Assembly: GCA_947494435.1 (NCBI GenBank)
Contig: CANLUY010000002.1
Location: 744,001-808,000 of the forward strand
Direction: 5' to 3'
From: an uncultured Litoreibacter sp.
Lineage (GTDB): Bacteria; Pseudomonadota; Alphaproteobacteria; Rhodobacterales; Rhodobacteraceae
DNA length: 64,000 bases
The translations under genes were made by a program, and so were the position numbers. This document shows, piece after piece, positions 9,929 to 63,437 of the stretch. Under the pieces are notes generated by a model, which was given only the letters and a program-made list of their open reading frames with translations, searched no databases and was not told the DNA's origin. Position 1 is the stretch's first letter, and every line of letters begins with the position of its first letter.

Positions 9929-9944
9929 TTAAGAGTAGGTTAAC
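9929..9944 (+). promoter_or_regulatory. CtrA-type binding box upstream of cckA
   Basis: TTAA (9929-9932), seven bases (GAGTAGG), TTAAC (9940-9944) is an exact match to the full CtrA consensus TTAA-N7-TTAAC. It ends 47 bases before the cckA start. CckA feeds phosphate to CtrA, so the site suggests feedback of CtrA on its own kinase. Confidence 0.7.
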
Positions 9945-61902: not shown

Positions 61903-62346
61903 ATGCCCTCTTTACTTGTCTTGAATGGCCCAAACCTTAACCTGCTTGGAACACGCCAACCCGAAGTGTACGGGCGTGTTACCTTGACAGACATCGAAGA
62001 GATGTGCGTGGCACACGCCAAACTCCGTGACGTTGGTTTGAGTTTTCAACAGTCGAACCATGAAGGCGTCTTGCTCGATGCGATCCATGACGCCAAAGGC
62101 AAACATGACGCGATCATTTTGAATGCTGGCGCTTACACCCATACATCTATCGCGCTTATGGACGCCGTGAGTTCTGTTGAGCTTCCGATGATTGAGCTGC
62201 ACCTATCCAATGTTCACGCTCGCGAAGACTTCCGGCACAGCTCGTATATCTCAAAGGTTGCGCTGGGTGTTATCTGTGGTTTTGGTGCGCGTGGATATAC
62301 GCTCGCGATGGACGCCGCGATTTCACATTTGGGACATAGCGCATGA
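61903..62346 (+). CDS. aroQ: Type II 3-dehydroquinate dehydratase
   Basis: A 147-residue AroQ of the shikimate pathway (3-dehydroquinate to 3-dehydroshikimate), normally a dodecamer. LVLNGPNLNLLGTRQPEVYG carries the catalytic tyrosine and arginine; QSNHEGVLLDAIHDA, ILNAGAYTHTSIAL and IELHLSNVHARE complete the site. The N-terminus is unambiguous, yet no Shine-Dalgarno precedes ATG 61903; CACCTCCT, the anti-Shine-Dalgarno sequence, is there instead. Its stop overlaps the luxR start by four bases. Confidence 0.95.
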   Translation: MPSLLVLNGPNLNLLGTRQPEVYGRVTLTDIEEMCVAHAKLRDVGLSFQQSNHEGVLLDAIHDAKGKHDAIILNAGAYTHTSIALMDAVSSVELPMIELHLSNVHAREDFRHSSYISKVALGVICGFGARGYTLAMDAAISHLGHSA

Positions 62347-63098
62347 TTGAGCGGTATCTTCATCAGATGACCGACGCGAACTCTATCGAGGACGCGTGGG
62401 ACATTCATACAAAACAAATGGCGGGATACGGGTTCGACCGCCTGCTCTACGCCTATACCCGATATGGCACGGGTACATCGTTGGGCGACCTTCAAGACGC
62501 GCTTATCCTGACCAATCACGATCCTGCTTATGTCGATGTCTTTATCGGTGAAGGCATGTATTCCAAAGGCCCAATGGTCGCTTGGGCCACTGCGAATACC
62601 GGTGCGTGTAGTTGGAATATGATCCACAAACAGATCGCGACAGGAAATGTAACGCCCGAAATGATGGAAGCTATGGCGCTTAATCAACGCCTTGACGTTG
62701 TTGCTGGCTACACAATCAGCTTTCACGAAGTCTCGCTACGAGCGAAAGGCGCGATCGGTTTGACTGCAAAGCGCGGCATGACCCAAGACGATGTTGACCA
62801 ACTCTGGGCGGAAAGTGGCTCCGACATTGAGTTGGCGAATAAGATCCTACACTTAAAAGTCGTTCAGCTACCGCATACCACCGGCCAAAGACGCAAGCTG
62901 ACAGCGCGGCAACGTGAAGTATTGGAATGGGTTGCGGATGGAAAGACGATCCAAGACACCGCGACAATTATGGGCCTGAACCCTGCCACTATCGAAAAGC
63001 ATTTGAGACTGGCACGAGAGTCTCTTGACGTTGACACGACAGCGCAAGCGATTCTGAAGGCCTCCTCTCAGAACCAGTTCTTCCTAATAGAGCGATAA
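62343..63098 (+). CDS. LuxR family transcriptional regulator (autoinducer-type, no luxI nearby)
   Basis: A 251-residue protein with an N-terminal autoinducer-binding-type domain and a C-terminal LuxR helix-turn-helix (KLTARQREVLEWVADGKTIQDTATIMGLNPATIEKHLRLARESL, about residues 184-228). Of the usual acyl-homoserine lactone contacts, the tryptophan is kept (CSWN, Trp91), but the Asp-Pro pair is replaced by Gly76-Pro77 in MYSKGPMVAW, so lactone binding is in doubt. No synthase gene is in the window. It is translationally coupled to aroQ. Two overlapping CtrA boxes begin one base after its stop codon. Confidence 0.88.
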   Translation: MIERYLHQMTDANSIEDAWDIHTKQMAGYGFDRLLYAYTRYGTGTSLGDLQDALILTNHDPAYVDVFIGEGMYSKGPMVAWATANTGACSWNMIHKQIATGNVTPEMMEAMALNQRLDVVAGYTISFHEVSLRAKGAIGLTAKRGMTQDDVDQLWAESGSDIELANKILHLKVVQLPHTTGQRRKLTARQREVLEWVADGKTIQDTATIMGLNPATIEKHLRLARESLDVDTTAQAILKASSQNQFFLIER

Positions 63099-63125
63099 TT
63101 AACAGAGTGTTAACAAAGTGTTAAC
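63099..63125 (+). promoter_or_regulatory. Tandem CtrA-type boxes: TTAA-N7-TTAA-N7-TTAAC
   Basis: TTAA (63099-63102), CAGAGTG, TTAA(C) (63110-63114), AAAGTG after the shared C, TTAAC (63121-63125): three elements 11 bases apart, giving two overlapping exact matches to TTAA-N7-TTAAC. Read on the other strand the same block has CTGTTAA/TTGTTAA repeats resembling a Pho box. No known gene lies behind it on the plus strand before tsf. Confidence 0.7.
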
Positions 63126-63131
63126 AGGCTC

Positions 63132-63149
63132 GGTAAGGGTTCCCTTACC
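63132..63149. repeat. Perfect 8+8 palindrome GGTAAGGG-TT-CCCTTACC
   Basis: GGTAAGGG (63132-63139) and CCCTTACC (63142-63149) are perfectly complementary across TT. It follows the tandem CtrA boxes by six bases. It could be an operator (its symmetry and length resemble a lux-type box) or the first hairpin of a small RNA. Confidence 0.55.
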
Positions 63150-63420
63150 TTGCATCTGCAGCATTTTTTGGCAGAATAAATGGTGTTCCGTGAGTGGTGG
63201 CTTTTGCCATGGGACTTTCGTCGGAGAGGACTTTCTTGGGTTTACAAGAAAGGATTCTTCGATCCGGTTTTCCGGTTCGTTGCCTGCTGCGCCTATAGTC
63301 GACGTGGCAGGCAACATCATTTCACCAAAGAGGCCCCCGACCCGGCTCCCCGGCTCGTCTTACGGGGCTTTGGAATGGAAAAGGCGGCGCCAGAGTCCTT
63401 CTGGCGCCGCCATTTATTTT
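63150..63420 (+). ncRNA. Candidate structured small RNA between luxR and tsf
   Basis: The 339-base gap after luxR holds no convincing protein. It has a chain of strong stems: CTTTCTTG/CAAGAAAG (63231-63252), CCGG-TTTT-CCGG (63264-63275), GTTGCCTGC/GCAGGCAAC (63279-63315) and the 12-base-pair terminator at 63383-63411. GGACTTTC occurs twice near 63212-63236. With the tandem CtrA boxes upstream this looks like a regulated RNA gene of about 250 bases. It shows none of the signature sequences of tmRNA, RNase P RNA, 6S or SRP RNA that I could recognise. The 5' end is only a guess. Confidence 0.4.
63383..63411. terminator. Terminator of tsf, probably bidirectional
   Basis: GGCGGCGCCAGA (63383-63394) pairs perfectly with TCTGGCGCCGCC (63400-63411), loop of five. 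On the minus strand TTTT follows, ending tsf; on the plus strand ATTTATTTT follows, so it can also end a transcript coming from the luxR side. Confidence 0.88.
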
Positions 63421-63437
63421 CGTTCGAACTAAACCAC

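What the first reader, a model, noticed from the sequence alone, without database searches (positions are those of the whole stretch)
63099..63437. Candidate CtrA-controlled structured RNA gene between luxR and tsf
Directly seen: three TTAA elements with exact 11-base spacing (two overlapping exact TTAA-N7-TTAAC boxes), a perfect 8+8 palindrome, at least three further stems and a 12-base-pair terminator with T-rich tails on both strands, all in 339 bases without a plausible gene. Known: in alphaproteobacteria CtrA binds this motif to control promoters, and in roseobacters it acts on motility, gene transfer agent and quorum-sensing genes. Inference: a small RNA is transcribed rightward from here, possibly linking the CckA-CtrA relay to the adjacent LuxR regulator. 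The boxes lie where no annotated plus-strand gene needs them.
Basis: partly seen in the sequence, partly recalled or inferred. Interest (0 to 1): 0.72.

Follow-up and report, generated by a model that had tools for sequence, protein, structure and literature searches.

The report
LuxR-paired small RNA gene in Rhodobacteraceae
The gap after a LuxR-type regulator gene encodes a small regulatory RNA that is absent from the RNA family catalogue and conserved in many related genera; its promoter carries a palindrome where a LuxR protein would be expected to bind, so these bacteria may turn an unknown signal directly into an RNA regulator.

Summary
Window 63185-63411 is a multi-hairpin small RNA ending in a 12-bp terminator. 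P1-P4 show strong covariation: 25 of 42 pairs change on both sides in 13 relatives, 36 of 42 in 55 (model-fitted), with 0 of 500 shuffles as high. G-U pairs outnumber A-C 81 to 9, so the plus strand is the RNA. The 17-nt start of the RNA (up to 1 mismatch) occurs in 164 of 295 sampled family genomes and 0 of 113 from other families. All 30 loci fetched by that motif lie 3' of a luxR orthologue on the same strand. No Rfam family matched at gathering level. CtrA is not the main story: TTAA-N7-TTAA lies upstream in 7 of 70 loci, six in the window's genus. The widespread element is an 18-bp palindrome (63132-63149), 51-54 nt upstream of the RNA in 69 of 70 loci, the LuxR class II position. Best reading: an atypical LuxR solo, lacking the AHL-contacting aspartate in 22 of 22 homologues, activates this small RNA, which acts through a C-rich loop. 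LuxR binding, expression and targets are inferred, not shown.

The parts
62343..63098 (+). luxR-type regulator gene (autoinducer-binding domain plus LuxR/GerE HTH), 251 aa; the probable regulator of the RNA
   Evidence: Pfam PF03472 E 7.7e-23 and PF00196 E 4.5e-9; an orthologue lies 5' of the RNA in 30 of 30 motif-fetched loci
63099..63125 (+). three TTAAC elements = two overlapping CtrA-type boxes (TTAAC-N5-GTTAAC)
   Evidence: 3 TTAA-N7-TTAA in window against 0.29 expected; TTAA-N7-TTAA in 7 of 70 loci, six of the window's genus
63132..63149 (.). 18-bp palindrome GGTAAGGG-TT-CCCTTACC, proposed LuxR-type box centred about -43.5 to -44.5 from the RNA start
   Evidence: box 51-54 nt upstream of the RNA in 69 of 70 loci; box-like site 3' of luxR in 67 of 80 loci against 11 of 609 background windows
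63149..63177 (+). proposed core promoter: -35 CTTGCA 63149-63154, -10 CAGAAT 63172-63177
   Evidence: in 68 aligned loci the A (position 2) and T (position 6) of a -10 hexamer and a G before it stand out most between box and RNA; in the window they sit one base further upstream; exact positions are inferred
63185..63412 (+). small RNA, about 228 nt (transcription start about 63184-63185, inferred)
   Evidence: covariation, covariance-model matches, G-U 81 against A-C 9
63185..63215 (+). P1 hairpin: GUUCC / near-invariant bulge GUGAGUG / GUGGC-loop-GCCAU / GGGAC
   Evidence: motif in 164 of 295 family genomes; per-position conservation; hardly varies in the 13-sequence set, so supported there by conservation, not covariation
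63220..63263 (+). P2 two-part hairpin
   Evidence: 14 of 14 pairs with changes on both sides (helices 3-4)
63264..63275 (+). P3 CCGG-UUUU-CCGG hairpin
   Evidence: 97.2% of cells paired (helix 5)
63279..63315 (+). P4 long hairpin, loop often UAUAGUC in close relatives
   Evidence: 14 of 14 pairs with changes on both sides (helix 6)
63318..63377 (+). P5 arm carrying the C-rich motif (GCUCCCC here; CAUCCCCA in part of the relatives), proposed mRNA-pairing loop
   Evidence: TCCCC invariant in 13 aligned relatives; TCCCCA in 42 of 70 loci against 3.1 in mononucleotide shuffles; fold; P5 pairing itself was not tested for covariation
63383..63411 (+). intrinsic terminator, 12-13 bp, terminator-like in both directions

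Best explanation
63185-63412 is the gene for a trans-acting small regulatory RNA that forms a module with the LuxR-type protein encoded just upstream. Proposed steps. (1) The LuxR protein, an atypical solo that probably senses something other than an ordinary acyl-homoserine lactone, binds the palindrome at 63132-63149 (inferred from position and co-conservation). (2) From there, beside or overlapping the -35, it activates transcription from about 63185, as class II LuxR activators do (inferred). (3) The RNA folds into P1-P5 and ends at the terminator shared with tsf (P1-P4 supported by covariation; transcription not shown). (4) Its C-rich P5 loop pairs with the ribosome-binding regions of mRNAs, and the P1 bulge serves as a second pairing or protein-binding site (inferred from conservation only). 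In part of the Litoreibacter lineage CtrA boxes further upstream would add input from the CckA-ChpT-CtrA relay (inferred from motif only).
For: RNA: 25 of 42 pairs with double-sided changes in 13 sequences, 0/500 shuffles, sliding control collapses; 36 of 42 in 55 sequences (alignment fitted to the model); G-U 81 against A-C 9. Spread: 164 of 295 family genomes, reversed-pattern control in about 15 by my count; 0 of 113 other-family genomes. Link to luxR: 30 of 30 loci returned for the RNA motif have luxR 5' on the same strand, 27 of 30 have convergent tsf. Box: 69 of 70 at 51-54 nt, a conserved island in otherwise unconserved DNA; 67 of 80 luxR loci against 11 of 609 windows; in 10 loci both box and RNA are missing, 8 of which still have tsf beside luxR. 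C-rich motif: TCCCCA 42 of 70 against 3.1; TCATCCCC in 11 of 19 box-bearing loci without a model match, against 0.17 expected. LuxR pocket: the residue aligned with the RhlR aspartate is G, A, S or T in 22 of 22 homologues.
Against: No expression, DNA-binding or target data. The box could belong to another regulator. The reverse complement of the 12-nt P1 bulge region occurs exactly 17 times in 21 genus genomes and 14 of these are the RNA gene itself, so it is not a long perfect antisense seed. Duplex energies to the luxR start showed no clear self-regulation (cognate mean -60.0, non-cognate -57.5, 35 loci). In the window itself the C-rich run reads UCCCCG and is partly paired in the fold. Three of 51 RNA-bearing luxR loci had no box at 9 of 12 positions, and 19 of 80 luxR loci had a box but no model match. 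A looser C-rich pattern (18 of 19) is expected in 7.9 of 19 by chance.
Confidence: 0.72

Rival explanations
1. The RNA is primarily a CtrA-regulon small RNA; the palindrome is secondary.
For: Two exact TTAAC-N5-GTTAAC boxes in the window; motif form as quoted in PMC7232146 (passage); TTAA-N7-TTAA in 6 of 12 same-genus loci examined.
Against: TTAA-N7-TTAA in only 7 of 70 RNA loci, while the palindrome is in 69 of 70 (a partly different set of 70). The boxes lie about 60-86 nt upstream of the inferred start, not at the -35.
Confidence: 0.12
2. The RNA is a 3'-UTR-derived small RNA processed from the aroQ-luxR transcript rather than made from its own promoter.
For: No terminator-like site was found between the luxR stop and the RNA; the RNA follows luxR on the same strand in 30 of 30 loci.
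Against: Box, -10-like positions and near-fixed spacing to the RNA start are conserved, while the luxR-RNA gap varies from about 70 to 390 nt.
Confidence: 0.12
3. The RNA acts by binding a protein (decoy or scaffold) through the near-invariant P1 bulge, not by pairing with mRNAs.
For: P1 and its bulge GUGAGUG are the most conserved part; only 3 of 17 exact 12-nt complements in 21 genus genomes lie outside the RNA gene.
Against: In 19 box-bearing loci where the model finds no RNA, TCATCCCC still follows in 11, which suggests that the C-rich part outlasts P1. Short seeds would not be seen by an exact 12-nt search.
Confidence: 0.22
4. The palindrome is the site of a regulator other than the adjacent LuxR.
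For: It differs in its half-sites from the 22-bp GtaR motif RACMTGTCYWWWWRGACAKGTY given in PMC11655674 (passage). LuxR sites are described there as highly degenerate.
Against: It tracks luxR: present 3' of luxR in 67 of 80 loci, centred near the class II lux-box position, and only 2-4 sites per genome at up to 1 mismatch in 5 genomes (the reversed control pattern is commoner, 12-17, so this rarity partly reflects composition).
Confidence: 0.2

Closest known systems
Regulator-adjacent small RNAs such as OxyR/OxyS, SgrR/SgrS, GcvA/GcvB (recalled)
   Same: A transcription factor gene beside the small RNA gene that it is thought to activate; intrinsic terminator; putative mRNA-pairing loops.
   Different: Here the regulator is a LuxR solo, the RNA lies 3' of it on the same strand, and targets are unknown.
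Vibrio Qrr small RNAs (recalled)
   Same: Small RNAs downstream of a cell-signalling type regulator.
   Different: Qrr RNAs depend on LuxO and sigma-54; this RNA has a sigma-70-like promoter with a lux-type box. No Qrr match came up in the Rfam scans.
GtaR/LuxR1/CerM quorum regulators of Rhodobacterales (PMC11655674: passages, outline and section 3.1 read)
   Same: LuxR family, palindromic site with an A/T-rich centre (GtaR), quorum-sensing and CtrA cross-talk in related bacteria.
   Different: All six C. sphaeroides LuxR homologues listed there keep D70 (W57 and Y61 are each replaced in one). The 22 homologues here have G/A/S/T at D70, Y (21) or H (1) at W57, and F (16) or Y (6) at Y61. Half-site AGTANGG instead of the GtaR ACMTGTC.
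CcsR1 (Rfam RF02791) and C-rich anti-Shine-Dalgarno small RNAs of alphaproteobacteria (the latter recalled)
   Same: C-rich exposed motif near a terminator hairpin.
   Different: Score 21.3 bits against a gathering threshold of 65.3, over 63357-63415, mainly the terminator.

Membership tests
Independent small RNA gene | conserved secondary structure with compensatory changes | tested here: met
   (P1-P4), with shuffle and sliding controls
Independent small RNA gene | intrinsic terminator | tested here: met
   63383-63411
Independent small RNA gene | no conserved open reading frame | tested here: met
   no Pfam match for the three gap ORFs tested; P1 loop length varies by 1-2 bases
Independent small RNA gene | own transcript with a primary 5' end | not testable with these tools
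   no RNA-seq held; only promoter-like conservation
LuxR-type box, class II promoter | dyad centred about -42 relative to the start, at the -35 | tested here: met
   box start 51-54 nt before P1 in 69 of 70; the start itself is inferred and the -42 rule is recalled
LuxR-type box, class II promoter | bound by the LuxR protein | not testable with these tools
   co-conservation only
CtrA regulon | TTAAC-N5-GTTAAC site | tested here: met
   two overlapping sites in the window
CtrA regulon | site conserved with the gene across the family | tested here: not met
   7 of 70 loci
AHL quorum-sensing receptor (canonical LuxR) | autoinducer-binding plus LuxR HTH domains | tested here: met
   22 of 22 aligned homologues
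AHL quorum-sensing receptor (canonical LuxR) | six pocket residues W57 Y61 D70 P71 W85 G113 | tested here: not met
   P, W and G kept in all 22; D70 position G/A/S/T in all 22; W57 position Y or H; Y61 position F in 16, Y in 6 (alignment to RhlR)
Any Rfam 15 family | gathering score | tested here: not met
   window best 21.3 bits against 65.3; in 20 related loci only three tRNAs
Riboswitch or mRNA leader | gene downstream on the same strand | tested here: not met
   tsf is convergent in the window and in 27 of 30 motif-fetched loci and 73 of 80 luxR-fetched loci
Anti-Shine-Dalgarno trans-acting small RNA | pairs with mRNA ribosome-binding sites | not tested
   only the C-rich motif is shown; pairing to the luxR start alone was tried and was inconclusive

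The most novel reading that the evidence does not exclude
A LuxR solo with a non-AHL pocket has, as its one broadly conserved target, the small RNA gene beside it: a private two-gene relay from an unknown signal to post-transcriptional control, kept across much of the Rhodobacteraceae and additionally wired to the CtrA cell-cycle relay in part of Litoreibacter.
Probability: 0.5. Interest if true: 0.78.

Novelty: new variant of a known kind. Interest (0 to 1): 0.64.

Why it matters
Roseobacters and their relatives carry many orphan LuxR genes whose ligands and targets are mostly unknown. This finding would give one widespread orphan a concrete, testable output, add an RNA family that no Rfam 15 model matched here and that is present in 163 of 294 sampled genera, and supply a promoter usable as a reporter to search for the unknown signal.

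Tried and rejected
Coding gene: the gap ORFs tested (within 63118-63429 +, 63180-63320 +, 63099-63320 -) have no Pfam match; P1 loop indels break a frame there. Known RNA family: none at gathering level. Second copies: one core match in the own genome at up to 1 mismatch and one R1 match (which scored only 150 of 1031 candidates). Perfect antisense seed for the P1 bulge: 14 of 17 exact complements in 21 genus genomes are the RNA gene itself. Self-regulation of luxR by pairing: inconclusive. Wider box regulon: 2-4 sites per genome in 5 genomes at up to 1 mismatch, fewer than the reversed control (12-17); the RNA-promoter site is among them in 4 of the 5, not in the window's genome, where it has 2 mismatches to that pattern. 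Among the site flanks compared (17 loci) the only shared non-coding site lies upstream of ybgC-tolQ; it reaches 10-12 of 12 positions in 3 of 21 same-genus genomes (30 loci, 3 without a recognised ybgC). Papers: searches. No listing or passage that I saw describes an RNA between luxR and tsf, but one lead stays open: PMC4809877 lists a 188-nt candidate 'riboswitch82' marked antisense to SPO1974, a LuxR-family autoinducer-binding gene of R. pomeroyi (passage), which I could not match by sequence. Passages only were seen of PMC9426580, PMC4809877, PMC5107571, PMC8632094, PMC2864571, PMC3824088 and PMC7232146; of PMC11655674 passages, outline with abstract and section 3.1. The library is open-licence PMC only, so an earlier description elsewhere is not excluded. 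Rows dropped: L078 and L073 from the second model's hits; loci with fewer than 15 of 17 core matches (41 of 111).

Full report
Where it lies. The window is G000:C2:744001-808000. The order is aroQ (61903-62346), luxR-type gene (62343-63098), the gap 63099-63437, then tsf on the minus strand. The closest named relatives by the LuxR protein are Litoreibacter.

The observation. TTAA-N7-TTAA occurs 3 times in 64 kb against 0.29 expected, twice here. The 8+8 palindrome is 63132-63149, the terminator 63383-63411. Rfam gives nothing at gathering level; the best weak hit is CcsR1, 21.3 of 65.3 bits, over the terminator region. Twenty related loci scanned at gathering level gave three tRNAs only.

It is a structured RNA. 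A DNA search with the gap found matches in 16 of 61 genomes, several reduced to a stretch of about 31-48 nt around GTTCCGTGAGTGGTGGC. I aligned 13 relatives over P1-P4 and tested a structure of 42 pairs in 6 helices, obtained with RNAalifold with P1 forced. 25 pairs change on both sides, covariation score 0.457 against 0.217 shuffled, 0 of 500 shuffles as high, and every slide of 1-3 columns lowers the score to 0.08-0.18. Because the structure was derived from these sequences it is favoured over its slid versions on cells paired. P1 hardly varies there, so it is supported by conservation rather than covariation in that set. A model built from it gave 53 matches in 85 sources, 13 of which were its own seeds. 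Of the five sources not chosen by luxR, four (L003, L014-L016) have luxR beside the RNA and one (L006) starts inside the gap at a contig end. The larger alignment of 55 matches, which leans to the model by construction, has 36 of 42 pairs with double-sided changes. A second model finds the RNA in 51 of 80 luxR-selected loci at E up to 0.01; I dropped two weaker rows, L078 (E 0.13) and L073 (E 0.46, far from luxR). G-U cells outnumber A-C cells 81 to 9 on the MAFFT alignment, so the plus strand is the RNA strand.

How widespread. The 17-nt motif with up to one mismatch occurs in 164 of 295 genomes (163 of 294 genera) of the family; the reversed control pattern occurs in about 15 genomes by my count, so a few of the one-mismatch matches will be chance. 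In a class-wide draw of 115 genomes only the 2 from this family match; 113 from other families do not.

With luxR. To avoid selecting on luxR I used the 30 loci returned for the motif alone (30 of the matches in 164 genomes; at least L146 and L154 look like species already seen as L067 and L052). All 30 have a luxR orthologue (worst E 1.7e-64) on the same strand 5' of the motif, about 70-390 nt away; 27 of 30 have tsf convergent on the other side. From the luxR side, 73 of 80 loci have convergent tsf.

The promoter. In 70 loci with at least 15 of 17 core matches, out of 111 examined, an element like AGTANGG-N4-CCNTACT starts 51-54 nt before the RNA in 69. Anchored profiles from 68 loci show an island of mostly 1-2 bits at this element in otherwise unconserved DNA; downstream the A and T of a -10 hexamer and a preceding G stand out most, the T 7 nt before P1. 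The dyad centre is about -43.5 from the RNA start, close to where class II LuxR activators sit (position recalled). A match at 9 of 12 positions is found 3' of luxR in 67 of 80 luxR loci against 11 of 609 background windows. In 19 of these the covariance model finds no RNA, in 10 loci neither is found, and in 3 RNA loci the element was below threshold. Of the 10, 8 still have tsf beside luxR, five of them Thioclava, and L053 is a second luxR of the genome that gave L035. In the 19, TCATCCCC follows in 11 against 0.17 in mononucleotide shuffles; a looser C-rich pattern follows in 18 against 7.9. This suggests a diverged form of the same RNA in Rhodobacter/Tabrizicola-type genomes.

CtrA. TTAA-N7-TTAA lies upstream of the RNA in 7 of 70 loci (a set partly different from that): the window, five other same-genus loci, and one distant locus; the full TTAAC-N5-GTTAAC form is in 5. 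The motif form is quoted in PMC7232146 (passage). CtrA input is therefore plausible in this lineage and not a property of the RNA family.

The LuxR protein. All 22 aligned homologues have both domains. A profile search aligns them with RhlR and CviR. The residue before the invariant proline, an aspartate in RhlR, is G, A, S or T in all 22; the W57 position is Y in 21 and H in one, the Y61 position F in 16 and Y in 6; P, W and G are kept. PMC11655674 (section 3.1) lists the six LuxR homologues of C. sphaeroides, all with D70. So this is a distinct solo whose ligand is probably not a standard AHL (inference). The own genome has one luxI-like gene, elsewhere at C1:255734.

Targets. The exact reverse complement of the 12-nt P1 bulge region is found 17 times in 21 genus genomes, 14 of them the RNA gene itself, so a long perfect seed is unlikely. 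The C-rich motif TCCCCA is in 42 of 70 loci against 3.1 in mononucleotide shuffles, as expected of a pairing loop against ribosome-binding sites; no target beyond the luxR start was tested, and that was inconclusive.

Judgement. A conserved small RNA gene: about 0.95. Control by the adjacent LuxR through the palindrome: about 0.75. Action by pairing through the C-rich loop: about 0.6. The regulator-beside-small-RNA plan is known from other systems (recalled); I saw no description of a LuxR solo with its own small RNA conserved across a bacterial family in the searches named in Tried and rejected.

Noticed in passing
L194 (G000:C1 near 58091), L213 (G009), L197 (G005): The same palindrome (10-12 of 12 informative positions) lies 108-120 bp upstream of a conserved motif in ybgC, ahead of tolQ, in 3 of 21 same-genus genomes: a possible second LuxR target.
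   Followed up: partly
G000:C2:1418466-1418484 (L102) and G000:C1:1743872-1743891 (L112): Two further perfect palindromes GGTAAGGAATTCCTTACC, one beside a low-molecular-weight tyrosine phosphatase-like gene, one between a carB-like gene and an unidentified ORF beside an RTX-like protein gene (gene names recalled from sequence, not searched).
   Followed up: no
L029-L034, 3' of luxR: In one Litoreibacter subgroup P1 changes to GTCTC..GAGAC or GCCTT..GAGGC with GAGTGACGG kept, and a CTCCTCCC run appears: a diverged version of the RNA.
   Followed up: partly
L041, L044, L059, L064, L066: Five Thioclava loci keep luxR beside convergent tsf but show neither palindrome nor RNA, natural comparisons.
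   Followed up: partly
window 9929-9943: A third TTAA-N7-TTAA site in the window.
   Followed up: no
G000:C1:255734-256138: Single luxI-like synthase match of this genome, unlinked to the luxR described here.
   Followed up: no
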